A stretch of 64,000 bases of DNA from Stenotrophomonas sp. BIGb0135 (GTDB taxonomy: Bacteria > Pseudomonadota > Gammaproteobacteria > Xanthomonadales > Xanthomonadaceae): positions 62,001 to 126,000 of the forward strand of contig NZ_JANUDX010000003.1 of NCBI RefSeq assembly GCF_024810105.1. The letters are read 5' to 3'. This document shows, in pieces, positions 22,187-54,098 of the stretch. How positions within the stretch are numbered: the first letter of the stretch is position 1; the number at the start of each line of letters is the position of its first letter. The position numbers and the translations under genes were made by a program. The notes below the pieces were generated by a model, which was not told where the DNA came from, searched no databases, and was given only the letters and a program-made list of their open reading frames with translations.

Positions 22187-22267
22187 CTGGACAGATCAAC
22201 GGTCAGTCGTTGAGGTCAACAGCCGTGGGCGGTGGCTGACAGCACACCAGCCCCGCCCCACCCCACC

Positions 22268-22377
22268 TACCAACCAATCAATCAACCAATCAACCAATCA
22301 ACCAATCAATCAATCAATCATCCAACCAACCATCCACCAATCCACCCAATCCACCAATCCACCCAATCCACCAATCC
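22268..22377 (+). repeat. CAAT/CAAC simple-sequence tract
   Basis: About 110 nt built of CAAT and CAAC tetramers (22268-22320), then a degenerate 17-nt period CCACCAATCCACCCAAT repeated about 2.5 times. G is almost absent from the plus strand, a strong strand asymmetry for this GC-rich genome. Non-coding. Confidence 0.9.
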
Positions 22378-22468
22378 CCCACAGCCAGCCACCCACCGCC
22401 AAGCAATGACTGCCCCAGGAACGTGATCAGATGCAGCCCGCATCCCCAGGCCACCGACCATCCACGCA

Positions 22469-22579
22469 GGTGCTGGCATGGGTGGGACTGCGGGGCCGAT
22501 TTTGCGCCATGGATGGCGCAAAACGAGCCTACATGGACGTACTTGCGGCGTGCCCCGCAGTCCCGCCCATGCCAGCGCC
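22469..22579. repeat. Large hairpin element, copy B (inverted relative to A)
   Basis: Outer arms 22469-22496 and 22552-22579 pair over 28 bp with two G-U wobbles. The interior, read on the minus strand, is ACGCCG...TACGT-CC-ATGTA...GGCTCG, then the core palindrome TTTTGCGCCAT-CC-ATGGCGCAAAA. The small hairpin differs from copy A but remains paired (CCCAT/ATGGG versus TACGT/ATGTA). The outer stem differs completely from A. Confidence 0.85.
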
Positions 22580-22612
22580 CTCCCACATGCACGCGAACAG
22601 GTTCCTGCCTTC

Positions 22613-22682
22613 GCTTTGCGCTTTGCGCTTTGCGCTTTGCGCTCTGCGCTCTGCGCTCTGCGCTCTGCGCTCTGCGCTCTGC
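22613..22682 (+). repeat. Heptanucleotide microsatellite (GCTTTGC)4(GCTCTGC)6
   Basis: Ten perfect 7-nt units: four GCTTTGC followed by six GCTCTGC. The two homogeneous sub-blocks differ by one base, a pattern typical of slippage expansion. It lies between large hairpin copy B and the terminator of the first initiator tRNA gene. Non-coding. Confidence 0.95.
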
Positions 22683-22707
22683 GCAATGAAAAACCAAACC
22701 CCCACAA

Positions 22708-22998: not shown

Positions 22999-23262
22999 CC
23001 GCGTCGGCGTCGGCATCGGCATCGGCATCGGCATCGGCATCGGCATCGGCATCGGCATCGGCATCGGCACCGGCACCGGCATCGGCATCGGCATCGGCAT
23101 CGGCATCGGCACCGGCATCTGCAGCGGCGTCGGCAGCGGCGTCGGCAGCGGCATGGGCGTGGGCACCTGCACCTGCACCTGCACCTGCACCTGCACCTGC
23201 ACCTGCACCTGCACCTGCACCTGCACCTGCACCTGCACCTGCACCTGCACCTGCACCTGCAC
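22999..23262 (+). repeat. Hexanucleotide microsatellite (CGGCAT)n then (CTGCAC)16
   Basis: 264 nt in uninterrupted 6-nt phase: 18 units of mostly CGGCAT (some CGGCAC) at 23011-23118, about eight mixed units (CTGCAG, CGGCGT, CGGCAG, GGGCGT), then 16 perfect CTGCAC units at 23167-23262. Several frames remain open across it on both strands and would encode Gly-Ile, Ala-Ser or Cys-Thr dipeptide repeats, which I regard as artefacts. It lies between the two initiator tRNA genes. Confidence 0.95.
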
Positions 23263-49169: not shown

Positions 49170-49211
49170 GGCGCGACAGCCGGTTGAGACAGGCTGACAA
49201 TTTAACGCACA

Positions 49212-49235
49212 TGTCATGACAGCAATATCGATATT
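49212..49235. promoter_or_regulatory. Two palindromes in the trpB/LysR divergent promoter region
   Basis: Perfect palindromes TGTCATGACA (49212-49221) and AATATCGATATT (49224-49235) lie two nt apart in the 95-nt region between the divergent trpB and LysR genes. Such an arrangement is typical for a LysR-type activator that controls its own gene and the neighbour, as TrpI does for trpBA in pseudomonads. Assignment inferred. Confidence 0.6.
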
Positions 49236-49264
49236 ATCTGCGACAACCCGTCAGGAAAACTCAC

Positions 49265-50158
49265 ATGAGCACCCCACCCCTGCCGCCCCTGAACGCCCTG
49301 CGCAGTTTCGAGGCGACCGCCCGCCTGGGCGGGGTGGGCCGTGCGGCTGCGTCCCTGCACGTGACCCACGGGGCGATCAGCCGCCAGCTGCGCGTGCTGG
49401 AGGAGCATCTGGGCGTGGCGCTGTTCGAGCGCGATGGCCGCGGGCTGCGCCCGACCGCGGCCGGCGAGGCCCTGCAGCAGGCCTGCGCCGGCGCGTTCGG
49501 GCAGATCCGTGAGGCGGTCGCCGCCCTGCAACGCCGCCAGCGCGCCGACGCGCTGGTGCTGGGCTGCAGTGGCAGCATCCTGGCGCGCTGGATGATTCCG
49601 CGGCTGCAGGTGCTGCAGGCCGACCTGCCGCAGGTGCCGCTGCACTGGTCCGCGCAGGACGGCAGCTTCACCGAGGCACAGCAATCGCTGGACGCGGTGC
49701 TGCTGCTGGCCCAGCCGCCGTGGCCGCCAGGCTGGCAGGTGCGCGAACTGGCGCCGGAGCGGGTGGGCGTGGTGGTGAGCCCGCAGCATCCGGCCGCGGC
49801 GCGGCTGCGCCAGCGCCCGCCGTCGACCCTGCTCGGCGAGCCACTGCTGCACACCACCTCGCGCCCCCAAGCCTGGCCGGCCTGGGCGCTGGCACACGGC
49901 CTGGACCCGGCGCGGTTGCAGCTCGGCAACGGCTTCGAGCACCTGTACTACCTGCTGGAGGCGGCGGTGGCCGGGCTGGGCGTGGCGATCGCACCGGAGC
50001 CGCTGGTGGCCGACGAACTGGCCGCCGGGCGACTGCTGGCCCCGTGGGGCTTTGCCGCCACCGGCGGATTCTGGGTGCTGGCGACGCCGGAGGGCGCGAG
50101 CGATCCACGGGTGGATGCGCTGGCCGGGTGGCTGGCCGCGCAACTGGCGCGCGCCTGA
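49265..50158 (+). CDS. LysR-family regulator, TrpI/GcvA-like
   Basis: 297 aa. N-terminal winged helix (residues 8-67, LPPLNALRSFEATARLGGVG and HVTHGAISRQLRVLEEHLG) and a periplasmic-binding-like effector domain (90-290). Divergent from trpB with a 95-nt shared promoter region, the geometry of trpI-trpBA in Pseudomonas, where indoleglycerol phosphate is the co-inducer. The sequence also fits the wider GcvA/AmpR subgroup, so the trp role is inferred from context. After its 3' end the REP-rich region begins. Confidence 0.88.
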   Translation: MSTPPLPPLNALRSFEATARLGGVGRAAASLHVTHGAISRQLRVLEEHLGVALFERDGRGLRPTAAGEALQQACAGAFGQIREAVAALQRRQRADALVLGCSGSILARWMIPRLQVLQADLPQVPLHWSAQDGSFTEAQQSLDAVLLLAQPPWPPGWQVRELAPERVGVVVSPQHPAAARLRQRPPSTLLGEPLLHTTSRPQAWPAWALAHGLDPARLQLGNGFEHLYYLLEAAVAGLGVAIAPEPLVADELAAGRLLAPWGFAATGGFWVLATPEGASDPRVDALAGWLAAQLARA

Positions 50159-50267
50159 CCGGGCCTCGCAGTTGCGCGTGGGTCTGGGCGTGGGCGGACA
50201 ACCGGCGATCCCGGATCTGGGGTCCACGCCCTGGGGAATATTGGTTCAGGCCGGAGGAGGCGCGAGC

Positions 50268-50410
50268 GTGGGGATCCACGATGGCGTGGATGTTGGAATG
50301 GGCCGGACGATCCGCGATCGTGGGGATCCACGATGGCGTGGATGCTGGAATGGGCCGAACGATCCACGATCGTGGGGATCCACACCGGCGTGGGCCGAAC
50401 GAACCGTGAT
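50268..50410 (+). repeat. 52-bp tandem repeats before the REP array
   Basis: Units begin at 50268, 50320 and 50372 (the third incomplete). Each contains GTGGGGATCCACGATGGCG, then TGGAATGGGCCG and ACGATCC. The half-palindromes GATCCACGATGGCGTGGAT resemble the REP core of the neighbouring array, so this may be a degraded or precursor repeat. Non-coding. Confidence 0.85.
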
Positions 50411-50413
50411 CGC

Positions 50414-51096
50414 GCAGATCCACGCCATGCGTGGATGCCGCGCGGCGCGTTTTCGATGACGTTTCATGGTGGCGGTACGGAGAGCATCCACGCATGGCGT
50501 GGATCTACGATGCTCCGTGGTGGGATGGACCGGGCCGCGCGAGTCGACATCCCGTAGATCCACGCCATGCGTGGATGCCGCGCAAGGCGCGGCGCGTTTC
50601 CGGTGACGGTTCATGGTGGCGGAACGGAGAGCATCCACGCGTGGCGTGGATCTACGATGGTCGGTGGTGGGATGGACCGGGCCACGCGATTCGACATCCC
50701 GTAGATCCACGCCATGCGTGGATGCCGCGCCACGCGCGGCGCGTTTTCGGTCACGGTTCATGGTGGCGGAACGAAGAGCATCCACGCGTGGCGTGGATCT
50801 ATGATGGTCGGTGGCGGGATGTTCCGGGCCGCGCGATCCGGCATCCCGTAGATCCACGCCATGCGTGGATGCCGCGCGACGCGCGGCGCGTTTTCGGTGA
50901 CGGTTCATGGTGGCGGAACGGAGAGCATCCACGCATGGCGTGGATCTACGATGGTCGGTGGCGGGATGTTCCGGGCCGCGCGATTCGACATCCCGTAGAT
51001 CCACGCCATGCGTGGATGCCGCGCGACGCGCTGCGCGTTTTCGGTGACGGTGCATGGTGGCGGGACGGAGAGCATCCACGCATGGCGTGGATCTAC
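50414..51096 (+). repeat. Left part of 147-bp periodic REP array (10 REP elements)
   Basis: Paired 25-nt REPs in opposite orientations. The direct form GTAGATCCACGCC-ATGCGTGGATG starts at 50414 (degenerate head), 50554, 50701, 50848 and 50995. The inverted form starts at 50484, 50631, 50778, 50925 and 51072. Except for a 7-nt deletion in the first unit, spacing is exactly 147 bp: 25-nt REP, 52-nt spacer, 25-nt inverted REP, 45-nt spacer. The GTAG head and imperfect palindrome match SMAG-type REPs of Stenotrophomonas. Confidence 0.93.
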
Positions 51097-51539
51097 GGCC
51101 ATCGACTCCAGGCGTGGGGGTACTCGCCGATCGCGCTGCTCAGGCCGGCGCGGATCGGATTGGTCATGACGTAGCGGGCGGCGTGGACAAGCGACTCGTC
51201 ATCACGCAGGGCGTGGTCGTGATAGCCATGCTGCCAGAGCTGCCCCTGCCTGCCCAACCTCAGATTGAGCAGCCTGGCGCTGCGCGATTTCAACAGGCCC
51301 ATGCAACTGGCCAGCGAGCCTCTCCGCAGTTCCATCAACCAATGGACATGGTCAGGCATCACCACCCAGGCGGTGCTGCGGCTGTAACCGTTGCGTTCGG
51401 CGTATCGAAGCGATTCCACCACCAGCGCCACGTTGCCGGGATCCAGGAACAGGCGACAGCGCCCGGCCACGACCAGCGTCAACAGATACGTGCTTCCGGG
51501 TTGCGATTGACGACCGTAGCGAAGGCGAGGACTGGCCAT
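51093..51539 (-). CDS. REP-associated tyrosine transposase (RAYT)
   Basis: 148-aa HUH/Y1 single-strand endonuclease of the IS200/IS605-like RAYT group, thought to mobilise REP hairpins. HUH motif H64-V-H66 in WVVMPDHVHWL, conserved WQHGYHDHALR (102-112), and the presumed catalytic Tyr123 in ARYVMTNPIRAGL. Intact. The start MASPRLRYGRQSQPG matches the family N-terminus; an earlier in-frame start adds 14 residues. It is embedded in the REP array, and its stop codon TAG is supplied by the GTAG head of the adjacent REP (51072-51096). Confidence 0.92.
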   Translation of the reverse strand: MASPRLRYGRQSQPGSTYLLTLVVAGRCRLFLDPGNVALVVESLRYAERNGYSRSTAWVVMPDHVHWLMELRRGSLASCMGLLKSRSARLLNLRLGRQGQLWQHGYHDHALRDDESLVHAARYVMTNPIRAGLSSAIGEYPHAWSRWP

Positions 51540-51627
51540 AAGCAAAGGGTGCGTGCGGGCTTGTCGGCCTTGTATCGCCACCCCGCTCCTTCAGGCGTCG
51601 GCGAACTATGCAGCGTCGGGTGGGAGA

Positions 51628-52163
51628 GCATCCACGCATGGCGTGGATCTACGGGGCTCGGTGGTGGGATGTTCCGGGCCGCGCGATCTGGCATCCCGTA
51701 GATCCACGCCATGCGTGGATGCCGCGCAAGGCGCGGCGCGTTTTCGGTGACGGTTCATGGTGGCGGTACGGAGAGCATCCACGCATGGCGTGGAACTACG
51801 ATGGTTGGTGGAGGGATGGATCTGGCCGCGCGATCTGGCATCCCGTAGATCCACGCCATGCGTGGATGCCGCGCAAGGCGCGGCGCGTTTCCGGTGACGG
51901 TTCATGGTGGCGGGACGGAGAGCATCCACGCGTGGCGTGGATCTACGGTGCTCGGTGGTGGGATGGACCGGGCCGCTCGATCCGGCGTCCCGTAGATCCA
52001 CGCCATGCGTGGATGCCGCGCCACGCGCGGCGCGTTTTCGGTCACGGATCATGATGGCGGGACGGAGAGCATCCACGCATGGCGTGGATCTACGATGGTT
52101 GGTGGAGGGATGGATCTGGCCGCTCGATCCGGCATCCCGTAGATCCACGCCATGCGTGGATGC
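51628..52163 (+). repeat. Right part of 147-bp periodic REP array (8 REP elements)
   Basis: Inverted REPs start at 51628, 51775, 51922 and 52069; direct REPs start at 51698, 51845, 51992 and 52139, all with exactly 147-bp spacing. Unit sequences are over 90 percent alike by eye to the left part, with scattered substitutions but no indels. The array ends about 50 nt before the telA stop codon. Confidence 0.93.
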
Positions 52164-52216
52164 CGCGCGGCGCGCGGCGCGCTTGCCGGTGGATCCGATG
52201 GCTGCGTGGCGTGGGG

Positions 52217-53317
52217 TTACGTGGTCGGGGCGGCCAGGCGCTGCTGCACGTCGTCGCGCAGACGTGCCAGTTCGACTTCGGCCTGCTGGCGCTGCTGCAT
52301 GCCCTCGCGGTGGACGGTGCGCACTTCCTCGACGGTGGCGATCAGCTGCTCATGCACGTGGCGCAGGGTGGCTACGTCGATCACCGCACGCTGGTTGGCC
52401 TTGGCCGTTTCCACGGTGGTCTGGCGCAGCAGGTCGGCATTGCGGCGCATCATCTCGTTGGTGGCGTCGTCGATGGCGTTGGACAGCGCGACCGCGTTCT
52501 TCTGCTCGCCCAACGACAACTGGATGGCGAACTGGCGCTTCCACGACGGAATGGTGATGTCGCGGACGGTGTTGAATTTCTCGACCAGCAGGATCGCGTT
52601 GGCCTGGATCAGGCGGATCATGGGCAGCGACTGGTCGGCCGCGTGCTGCATGACCACCAGGTCGCCGACGCGCTTGTCGATCAGGCGGATCGCGTTGTCC
52701 AGCTCGCCTTGGCGGATGCGCTGCTGCGGATCATCCTGGCCCTGCCCGGCCAGCTGTTCGCCACGCAGCGCGGCGAGCCGGCGCTTGCCGGCGGCGATGT
52801 GCAGGCCCAGGCCGTGGCGCTCCTCGCGGACGATCTCGTGCATGCGGTCGAACTCGACCACGCGCTGGCCCATCAGGGCCTGCTGGCTGCCGACGTCCCC
52901 CATGAGCTGTTCGATCTGGCGGTTGGTGTCGCTGAACTTCTGCACCAGCTCGCCCTTGGATGCCCGCAGCTTGTCGATCAAGCCGCCGATCACCGGTACC
53001 TTCGAACGCTCGGCTAGGCCGTCGAGTTTGAGCGAGCGTGCGATGCGCACCACCTCGCCCAGCTTGTCGCCACTGGCGTCAAGATCGCGGTTGCGCACCT
53101 GGTCCAGCAGCTGGCTGGAGAACGCCGCCGTCTTGGCGGCGGCGTCGCGGCCGAATACCTGCAGGTTGCCGGGCCGGATGTCATCCAACCCACGCCCGAT
53201 CTCCTCGATCTTCGGCAGGTCGTCCTGGCCAAGGCCAAGTGCCTGCAGCGCCGCGTCGTCCAGCACGTCGGCCGTGGTCACGGGCAGGGTCGAAGTGGCC
53301 TGCGGGTCCTGGGTCAT
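52217..53317 (-). CDS. TelA-family protein (toxic anion resistance)
   Basis: 366 aa, mostly helical, no membrane segment, TelA family. Core features: VPVIGGLIDKLRASKGELVQKFSD, then long helices with DITIPSWKRQFAIQLSLGEQKNAVALSNAIDDATNEMMRRNADLL. ATG at 53315-53317 with GGAG eight nt upstream. Family members are linked to tellurite and cell-envelope stress, but the molecular role is unknown. Last gene of the YqiJ-YqiK-ATPase-TelA-like-TelA operon, whose composition suggests a membrane-stress assembly rather than tellurite detoxification alone. Confidence 0.9.
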   Translation of the reverse strand: MTQDPQATSTLPVTTADVLDDAALQALGLGQDDLPKIEEIGRGLDDIRPGNLQVFGRDAAAKTAAFSSQLLDQVRNRDLDASGDKLGEVVRIARSLKLDGLAERSKVPVIGGLIDKLRASKGELVQKFSDTNRQIEQLMGDVGSQQALMGQRVVEFDRMHEIVREERHGLGLHIAAGKRRLAALRGEQLAGQGQDDPQQRIRQGELDNAIRLIDKRVGDLVVMQHAADQSLPMIRLIQANAILLVEKFNTVRDITIPSWKRQFAIQLSLGEQKNAVALSNAIDDATNEMMRRNADLLRQTTVETAKANQRAVIDVATLRHVHEQLIATVEEVRTVHREGMQQRQQAEVELARLRDDVQQRLAAPTT

Positions 53318-53375
53318 CGGTGGATCTCCATGCTGTTGGGCGGCCGACGGCGGCGCACCGGTAGGGGCAGTGTCT

Positions 53376-54098
53376 TCATCGCAGTCTAGCCTGCGCCGAG
53401 GCAACCTCGGCGGCGATCTCGGCCTGTAGGTGCGCGGCGCGCTGGCTCCGCTGGGCCTGGTCCTTTACGTGCCGCGCCAGCGTGGCCTGTTTCCAGGCCG
53501 GCAACAGGATGTCGGCGATGCGGCGGAAGCGCGCCAGCAACGCCTCGTCCTGCGCCAGCAGCAGCTGCCACTGGGCCGCTTCGCTGCGCTGCAGGGCGGC
53601 CAGGCGGCGCAGGTGATCCAGGCGCTGGGCCAGCACCCCCTGCAGCGCGCTGCCATCGCCGCCCGGCAAGCCGGGCAGCGCCTGGCTGCCGGCATCGACC
53701 CACTGCTGCAGCGCGGCGGCTGCCTGCTCGCTGGTGGCGACCGCTGCCTGCCGCTGCGCCGCGGCGGCCTGCACCCGCGCCGCGCACGCCTCGGCCTGCA
53801 GCAGCAGCACGCCCAGTTGCGGCTGCAACGCGTCGGCATCGCGCTGGCGCTCGACGTCGCGGCCGAGCAGGCGCCCCCACCAGCCGGCCTGGCGGCGCAG
53901 CGACGCCGGATCGGCCGCCTGCAACGCCAGTGCGAGTCGTGCCAGCGCATCGATCAGACCCGCCGCGCCACCGTCGTGCAGCGCGCCCTGCGCATCCGCC
54001 CGGCGTGCAATCGCCCGCAGCAACGGATCGCCATACGACGCGAGCGTCGCCGCCTGCGGCGTGTCGACGGCGACCGGCGCGGGCAGCGTGGTGTTCAT
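53376..54098 (-). CDS. Helical protein resembling a truncated TelA
   Basis: 240 aa, Ala/Leu/Gln/Arg-rich, almost entirely helical with likely coiled coils (about 85-200). Near the C-terminus FRRIADILLPAWKQATLARHVKDQAQ resembles the TelA segment DITIPSWKRQFAIQL, suggesting a diverged TelA-like fold without the N-terminal part. The ATG overlaps the stop of the large ATPase by four nt, and telA follows after 58 nt. Function unknown; perhaps a partner of TelA or of the ATPase. Confidence 0.8.
   Translation of the reverse strand: MNTTLPAPVAVDTPQAATLASYGDPLLRAIARRADAQGALHDGGAAGLIDALARLALALQAADPASLRRQAGWWGRLLGRDVERQRDADALQPQLGVLLLQAEACAARVQAAAAQRQAAVATSEQAAAALQQWVDAGSQALPGLPGGDGSALQGVLAQRLDHLRRLAALQRSEAAQWQLLLAQDEALLARFRRIADILLPAWKQATLARHVKDQAQRSQRAAHLQAEIAAEVASAQARLR

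What the first reader, a model, noticed from the sequence alone, without database searches (positions are those of the whole stretch)
50414..52163. Eighteen REPs in an exact 147-bp tandem array surrounding a RAYT
Nine direct and nine inverted GTAG-headed REPs alternate with fixed 52- and 45-nt spacers; apart from one 7-nt deletion the period is exactly 147 bp across substitutions in every unit. Ordinary REPs and BIMEs are scattered or in short, looser arrays. Strict length conservation with sequence drift suggests selection on spacing (about 14 helical turns) or amplification of whole units. A transcript or the DNA itself would fold into a regular chain of hairpins.
Basis: seen in the sequence. 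Interest (0 to 1): 0.8.

Follow-up and report, generated by a model that had tools for sequence, protein, structure and literature searches.

The report
Tandem REP array around its transposase
A Stenotrophomonas genome carries 18 small DNA palindromes in a very regular array around the transposase gene thought to move them; it is an unusually large and tidy example of a known kind of structure, and its exact spacing looks like the result of whole-unit copying rather than a sign of a special function.

Summary
Eighteen GTAG-type REPs (9 direct, 9 inverted) lie at 50414-52162 around an intact RAYT gene (51093-51581, minus strand), with period exactly 147 bp apart from one 7-nt deletion. It is a modular BIME / tandem REPIN array of the published REP class SM4/S_sp1 around its probable cognate RAYT. 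Tandem REP arrays and arrays beside RAYTs are both in print (PMC2817692, PMC3116915, PMC2613905).

Selection on spacing is not supported. Of 18 other REP-rich loci fetched from this genome, 17 hold tandem arrays, with periods of 36-226 bp, 0-2% indels in 16 of 17 and no common helical phase. REPs are conserved (4 of 48 columns variable) while spacers drift (29 of 99). One indel against at least 36 substitutions is unremarkable unless indels normally exceed about 0.1 per substitution.

RAYT and array are absent from the same gap in 20 of 20 relatives fetched; one has a single REP pair there. Whole-unit amplification of a REP pair plus flanking DNA explains the array. All nine minus-strand REPs, and no plus-strand one, have within 7 nt the CT that a related enzyme cuts, so RAYT-driven copying is plausible but unproven.

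The parts
50414..50437 (+). REP 1 (head mutated, GCAG)
50485..50508 (-). REP 2, CT within 7 nt of its 3' end
50554..50577 (+). REP 3
50632..50655 (-). REP 4, CT in tail
50701..50724 (+). REP 5
50779..50802 (-). REP 6 (head ATAG), CT in tail
50848..50871 (+). REP 7
50926..50949 (-). REP 8, CT in tail
50995..51018 (+). REP 9
51073..51096 (-). REP 10, CT in tail; TAG of its GTAG head is the RAYT stop codon (51093-51095)
51093..51581 (-). RAYT (REP-associated tyrosine transposase); listed ORF 162 aa; probable start ATG ending at 51539 gives 148 aa
   Evidence: PF01797, 34.5 bits, cut-off 23; 4er8 TnpArep, E 3.5e-7
51629..51652 (-). REP 11, 5' REP of the RAYT, CT in tail
51698..51721 (+). REP 12
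51776..51799 (-). REP 13, CT in tail
51845..51868 (+). REP 14
51923..51946 (-). REP 15, CT in tail
51992..52015 (+). REP 16
52070..52093 (-). REP 17, CT in tail
52139..52162 (+). REP 18
50439..51097 (.). left 147-bp tandem array, 4.5 copies by TRF
51623..52181 (.). right 147-bp tandem array, 3.8 copies by TRF; 51623-52191 also scored as a 294-bp repeat (paired units)
51720..51738 (+). example of the GC hairpin followed by TTTT inside the 54-nt spacer (terminator-like); the same at 50723, 50870 and 52014, a weaker one at 51020
   Evidence: 10 rows (overlapping rows describe the same hairpins) against 1.6 expected in 49200-53400
50249..50383 (.). degenerate 52-bp array of related REPs, homologous to the right half of the 45-nt spacer plus REP
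   Evidence: score 26; 0 of 4000 random stretches as high
52196..52218 (-). possible degraded 19th REP next to the telA-family stop codon; doubtful
   Evidence: 1.2% of random stretches as high; limits set by eye
49265..50158 (+). LysR-family regulator, left convergent neighbour
52217..53404 (-). TelA-family protein gene, right convergent neighbour

Best explanation
It is a modular BIME, that is, a tandem REPIN array, built around its probable cognate RAYT. SHOWN: the 147-bp unit is a tail-to-tail REP pair (102 bp, of a family seen elsewhere) plus a 45-bp spacer that no listed match from another genus genome spans; the same gap in a relative holds one such pair; RAYT and array are absent from that gap in 20 of 20 relatives fetched; this genome has many other exact REP arrays; of the four Y1 transposase loci found in it, only the window's has SM4 REPs around it. 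INFERRED: a single REP pair in the lysR-telA gap was copied together with flanking DNA into tandem units. Whole-unit copying and loss keep the period exact while substitutions accumulate, so spacing needs no selection. The RAYT lies in the chain as one long module between two same-facing REPs. INFERRED, less sure: copying was started by the RAYT cutting single-stranded DNA at the CT after each minus-strand REP, which recurs every 147 nt; ordinary recombination or replication slippage then reshaped the array. A likely side effect is transcription termination between the two convergent genes.
For: Anatomy. REP class equals S_sp1/SM4 of PMC2817692 and PMC3686654 (tables read). Cognate pairing: the window RAYT locus has 18 SM4 REPs in 3.5 kb, the other three Y1 loci of the genome 0. 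Unit specificity: 147-bp query over 91 genus genomes including the own one; the listed full-length matches are all in the own genome (list sorted by E-value and capped). Locus history: lysR-telA adjacency in 20 of 20 relatives fetched (the first 20), no RAYT hit, gaps of 29-462 bp; G074 (L092) has one REP pair of this family there. Own-genome arrays: 17 of 18 REP-rich non-RAYT loci give TRF arrays (loci chosen for REP hits). Array plus RAYT elsewhere: 12 of 83 RAYT loci have arrays within 400 bp on both sides and 24 of 83 a direct repeat of 80 bp or more across the gene (window included in both); G089 has a RAYT between 5.4 and 1.8 copies of a 100-bp module. Paired-unit 294-bp repeat. Cut site: CT within 7 nt after 9 of 9 minus REPs and 0 of 9 plus REPs; TnpAREP of S. 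maltophilia cuts at CT in vitro (PMC8266576, passages).
Against: A RAYT role in amplification is not shown. SM5-class REPs also form exact arrays in this genome (107 places with up to 1 mismatch) although none of its four Y1 loci has SM5 REPs within about 1.5 kb. The CT asymmetry is not a general rule: 18 of 38 dimers in 12 other genomes have exactly one CT, expected 18.8. The origin of the spacer from the array's edges is weakly supported: the right half against the left flank scores no better than 9.8% of random stretches in local alignment, though 16 of 24 identical bases occur at only 20 of 123790 places in an ungapped scan; the left half against the telA end 1.3%. The published SMAG arrays show size sub-variants within a copy-number class as well as whole-unit changes. 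No other strain of this species was available.
Confidence: 0.85

Rival explanations
1. The 147-bp spacing itself is selected, for example to put REPs on one face of the helix for IHF, gyrase or RAYT binding.
For: 147 is 14.0 turns at 10.5 bp per turn; only one indel against at least 36 substitutions, which would be unusual (probability 0.03) if indels run at 0.15 per substitution.
Against: 17 other arrays of this genome have periods of 36-226 bp with no common phase (Rayleigh p 0.21-0.32, mean cosine -0.07 to -0.28) and similarly few indels. At assumed ratios of 0.03, 0.05 and 0.1 one indel or fewer has probability 0.71, 0.46 and 0.13. Sequence variation falls in spacers (29 of 99 columns), not REPs (4 of 48; Fisher p 0.005), though this concerns sequence, not length.
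Confidence: 0.06
2. RAYT plays no part: the array grew by RecA-dependent unequal exchange or replication slippage between REP hairpins, and the RAYT later moved into it.
For: Exact arrays of SM5 REPs exist while no Y1 locus of this genome has SM5 REPs near it; arrays lie at many sites without a RAYT; the 294-bp paired-unit structure suits multi-unit exchange; published SMAG arrays vary in unit number among isolates (PMC2613905, Results part 1).
Against: Arrays crowd at RAYTs (all 3 RAYT loci of this genome tested; one third of RAYTs adjoin BIMEs in PMC2817692); CT after every minus-strand REP only.
Confidence: 0.35
3. Assembly artefact: wrong number or order of units.
For: Other REP arrays sit at contig ends in this 21-contig assembly: C1 begins inside a 126-bp array, and C8 ends with REP pairs at 127-bp spacing.
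Against: Units differ at 33 of 147 columns, so this array is not a collapse of identical copies, and it is assembled through with unique flanks.
Confidence: 0.08

Closest known systems
Tandem REPIN clusters beside RAYT genes, Pseudomonas fluorescens SBW25 (Bertels and Rainey 2011, PMC3116915; passages seen)
   Same: Tandem repeats of nearly identical REP pairs including flanking sequence; a cluster lies next to each of three RAYTs; higher-order sets of up to twelve REPs are mentioned.
   Different: Largest ordered REPIN cluster named there is four REPINs plus one REP, over 700 bp; here 18 REPs over 1.75 kb on both sides of the RAYT.
Modular BIMEs of Stenotrophomonas and rayt-BIME association (Nunvar 2010, PMC2817692; Results part 1, Relationship section and Discussion read)
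   Same: REP class S_sp1 is this REP; modules of inverted REPs with two intervening segments joined head to tail; one third of RAYTs adjoin a BIME; E. coli rayt has BIME-2 on both sides; a rolling-circle model is proposed.
   Different: The S_sp1 RAYT of strain SKA14 is listed without BIME association; the window RAYT has arrays on both sides.
SMAG arrays used for strain typing in S. maltophilia (Roscetto 2008, PMC2613905; Results part 1 of 2 read)
   Same: REP monomers or dimers plus flanking DNA in tandem, units of e.g. 50 and 103 bp, copy number varying among 38 strains.
   Different: Another REP class; no RAYT inside the arrays is described in the part read.
TnpAREP REPtron Sm (PMC8266576; passages seen)
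   Same: REP of 23 nt with GTAG, 8-bp perfect stem and 3-nt loop; enzyme cuts at CT in vitro.
   Different: Different REP sequence; activity of the window's RAYT untested.

Membership tests
Modular BIME / tandem REPIN array | REPs in alternating orientation separated by two recurring spacers, modules head to tail | tested here: met
Modular BIME / tandem REPIN array | Copy number varies by whole modules between strains | not testable with these tools
   one genome per species held; no second strain
RAYT (IS200/IS605-like Y1 transposase of REPs) | Y1_Tnp domain with HUH motif and catalytic tyrosine | tested here: met
   PF01797 over cut-off; aligned to 4er8 TnpArep through its His-x-His and Tyr regions; the roles of these residues are recalled, not from a call
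RAYT (IS200/IS605-like Y1 transposase of REPs) | Gene flanked by abundant REPs in inverted orientation | tested here: met
   REPs on both sides; the two nearest face the same way, the inverted partner comes next. L015, L033, L035 and L050 show the same order by the scan
RAYT (IS200/IS605-like Y1 transposase of REPs) | Cuts its cognate REP in single strand | not testable with these tools
   needs purified enzyme
REP class SM4 / S_sp1 | GTrGATCCACGCCATGCGTGGAT, many copies per genome | tested here: met
   195 matches up to 2 mismatches, 0 for the reversed pattern; class sequence
RAYT at the site shared by its closest relatives (probably orthogroup II of PMC3686654; that equation is my inference) | Shared chromosomal site | tested here: not met
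   14 of 29 related RAYT loci share one site, the window's does not; the own genome lacks a RAYT there. Tree placement with that group is weak (84/62)

The most novel reading that the evidence does not exclude
The array is a processed chain: nine same-strand REPs, each with a CT cut site, mark modules of 147 nt and one of 556 nt that carries the RAYT gene itself, so the RAYT is one exchangeable module of its own BIME. RAYT cuts at successive CT sites would release single-stranded circles of exactly one or more modules, and copying of such circles would write arrays of exact period and carry the RAYT to a new site, here the lysR-telA gap.
Probability: 0.25. Interest if true: 0.55.

Novelty: new member of a known kind. 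Interest (0 to 1): 0.27.

Why it matters
How REP arrays grow, and whether RAYTs make them, is open: Nunvar 2010 offers a rolling-circle model and calls for experiments. This locus is a clean test case: a large array with one candidate cut site per module, the transposase inside it, and an empty or single-pair site in relatives. It also warns that an exact period in a REP array can simply be the outcome of whole-unit copying and should not be read by itself as selection on length.

Tried and rejected
Helical phasing: tested over 17 other arrays, no common phase. Indel depletion: significant only at the highest assumed ratio (0.15), not at 0.03-0.1. A general rule 'each REP pair has exactly one CT-tailed REP' looked strong in this genome's array loci (30 of 36 unique dimers, expected 17.5, both-CT 0), but these share ancestry, and it failed in 12 other genomes (18 of 38, expected 18.8, p 0.75; 22 of 38, p 0.09, with a 5-nt tail) and in relatives' loci (29 of 50, expected 24.2, p 0.15). 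An earlier mixed set gave 49 of 69 (6 of 20000 permutations), falling to 24 of 35 with one per locus and class pair (p 0.034), with the TC control raised as much. A smaller SM8 set gave 9 of 14. Exceptions exist even in this genome: L118, L119 and L128 have no CT in either orientation. Kept only as a fact about this array and its siblings. Array older than RAYT insertion: units on one side are somewhat more alike than across the RAYT (11.0 against 13.6 differences, 1 of 35 groupings as extreme), yet U2 and U7, on opposite sides, are among the closest pairs; order of events unresolved.

Limits of the counts: one search's REP finder missed some window REPs (13 of the 18), so its spacings are used only beside. 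The substitution counts use seven units and two part units; the last, part unit (from 52139) was left out. The 20 own-genome loci were picked for REP hits (18) or a RAYT (2). The 20 relatives are the first 20, not all. One search left out 4 rows with a stop inside (L015, L055, L056, L137). RAYT loci L009-L088 are the best 80 of 240 confirmed. One search used 29 of these 80. Lists are capped; their totals are whole.

Full report
OBSERVATION. Eighteen REPs (9 plus, 9 minus) with gaps of 45 and 54 nt run from 50414 to 52162, and TRF finds period 147 with 0% indels on both sides of a RAYT. The one exception is a 7-nt deletion in the first unit; even there the minus-strand REPs stay in step (50485 to 50632 = 147). 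The order is plus-minus five times, RAYT, then minus-plus four times. Seen along the minus-strand REPs, the chain is nine REPs with seven steps of 147 and one of 556 that holds the RAYT. The RAYT stop codon TAG is the TAG of the adjacent REP head; such stop-codon supply by GTAG REPs is in print (PMC3733652, section on genome distribution).

WHAT IT IS. The REP equals class S_sp1 of Nunvar 2010 and SM4 of Nunvar 2013. The gene is a Y1 transposase (PF01797, 34.5 bits against a cut-off of 23); the only solved structure found by sequence is TnpArep, 4er8. The genome has three Pfam-detected Y1 loci and a fourth, weak one (29% identity, E 3e-4). In about 3.5 kb around each, SM4 REPs number 18 at the window locus and 0 at the other three, which supports the pairing. 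The unit divides into REP+ (24), a 54-nt spacer, REP- (24) and a 45-nt spacer. The REP-54-REP pair belongs to a family: stretches 77-81% identical occur at C2:207 kb of the own genome and in G074. Of 91 genus genomes (own included), 65 match some part of the unit; the listed full-length matches are all in the own genome, and no listed match from another genome spans the 45-nt spacer, though one in G019 reaches into it (capped list sorted by E-value). The 54-nt spacer carries a GC hairpin followed by TTTT; one search lists 10 terminator-like rows in 49200-53400 against 1.6 expected, several of them overlapping readings of the same hairpins.

SURROUNDINGS AND HISTORY. The array fills the gap between convergent genes of the LysR and TelA families. 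In the 20 relatives fetched, 20 have the same adjacency with gaps of 29 to 462 bp and no RAYT hit (window gap 2058 bp). By eye those gaps hold different REP classes, and in L104 and L109-L111 a long palindrome ending in T-runs instead. G074 (L092) has one REP pair of the window's family in the same orientation. Of 29 related RAYT loci, 14 share one other site, probably orthogroup II of PMC3686654. In the own genome that site has no RAYT but four SM5-like REPs in a 91-bp array. So the window's RAYT sits elsewhere than these kin. A tree puts it near that group only weakly (84/62, long branch), so relocation, duplication with loss, and transfer cannot be told apart. PMC3686654 already reports RAYTs at novel sites in some strains (passage).

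IS THE SPACING SPECIAL? Not by these tests. I fetched 18 REP-rich loci of this genome that lack a RAYT; 17 give TRF arrays, with main periods of 36 to 226 bp (for L118 the 207-bp row was used; a 266-bp row is also scored) and 0-2% indels in 16 of 17 (9% in L125). SM5-class REPs show further regular arrays, for instance steps of about 82, 88 and 89 bp. The periods share no helical phase. At least 36 substitutions and 1 indel separate the units; the chance of so few indels is 0.71, 0.46, 0.13 or 0.03 for assumed indel:substitution ratios of 0.03, 0.05, 0.1 or 0.15, so only the highest ratio would call for an explanation. REP columns vary less than spacer columns (4 of 48 against 29 of 99, p 0.005): the REPs are what is kept.

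ARRAYS AND RAYTS. Of 83 RAYT loci (80, two more of this genome, and the window), 12 have arrays within 400 bp on both sides and 24 have a direct repeat of 80 bp or more across the gene. Twelve of the 83 have less than 1 kb of flank on a side. The window has the longest such repeat (562 bp). G089 repeats the design with a 100-bp module (5.4 and 1.8 copies) at another gap. The three RAYTs of this genome tested have arrays on both sides.

MECHANISM. Copying of whole modules, pair plus flank, explains exact period, drift, 294-bp paired units and the degenerate 52-bp array beside it, which repeats the right half of the spacer plus a REP (0 of 4000 random stretches score as high). What drives copying is open. 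The S. maltophilia TnpAREP cuts at CT next to its REP in vitro (PMC8266576, passages). Here CT lies within 7 nt after 9 of 9 minus-strand REPs and 0 of 9 plus-strand REPs, so candidate cut sites recur every 147 nt on one strand and also bound the RAYT. Among 74 unique SM4 tails from this genome CT stands at offset 1 in 35% and offset 3 in 28%, against 4.4% background. That fits the rolling-circle model of Nunvar 2010. But the one-CT pattern is not general, and exact SM5 arrays exist here although none of the four Y1 loci has SM5 REPs near it. I put RAYT-started copying at somewhat better than even and plain recombination or slippage at about one in three. Either way the array is the same known kind of thing.

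FOLDING. A single unit folds far better than shuffles as DNA (z -5.66 and -6.32), with REP+ paired to REP- in one long hairpin; 594 nt of the right array as RNA give z -13.76. This follows from the inverted repeats and does not show a transcript.

LITERATURE. Searches covered REPs of Stenotrophomonas, SMAG, REP-BIME and TnpAREP, REPIN with RAYT and tandem, and TnpA cleavage. Tandem REP arrays, their place beside RAYTs, copy-number variation and the CT cut site are all in print in the parts I saw. I saw no description of this particular array, but those searches cover only open-licence papers, and I read sections or passages of five of them, not whole texts.

VERDICT. Real, large and tidy, but a new member of a known kind; spacing selection is not supported. 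Interest 0.27.

Noticed in passing
L092-L111 (lysR-telA gap in 20 relatives): One convergent gap holds different REP classes in different species. The lysR stop is the TAG of a palindrome-bearing GTAG in 5 of 20 by script (L094, L099, L101, L102, L108; for L108 the script's start lay past the first such stop), and by eye also in L105 and L106, where the alignment ran past the stop. L104 and L109-L111 have a long palindrome ending in T-runs instead: REPs seem to take the place of a two-way terminator.
   Followed up: partly
G000 contigs C1, C2, C6, C8 and others: SM5-class REPs (GTAGAGCCACCCCATGGGTGGCT, 107 places with up to 1 mismatch) form exact arrays, yet none of the four Y1 transposase loci found in this genome has SM5 REPs near it: perhaps arrays that outlived their transposase.
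   Followed up: partly
L134 3218-3577: The site where 14 related RAYT loci lie has no RAYT in the window's genome and holds four SM5-like REPs in a 91-bp array (TRF 2.5 copies).
   Followed up: yes
L139 2015-3310: G089 RAYT lies between 100-bp REP modules (5.4 and 1.8 copies) at another gap, beside a gene that reads like a DNA ligase: an independent copy of the window's design.
   Followed up: partly
22265-22684 and 23004-23262: Several short tandem repeats (units of 4-8, 7, 6 and 6 bp; one GCACCT run of 16.7 perfect copies) lie beside two near-identical stretches that look by eye like tRNA genes; possible hypervariable markers.
   Followed up: no
G000 C1:1-894 and C8:209445-209714: Two contig ends lie in REP-pair arrays of 126-127 bp spacing with like tails, so REP arrays probably broke this assembly and these ends may belong together.
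   Followed up: no
L243 (G000:C5:198281-198706): A fourth, distant Y1-like match (29% identity, E 3e-4) without SM4 or SM5 REPs around it; its own repeats were not looked for.
   Followed up: no
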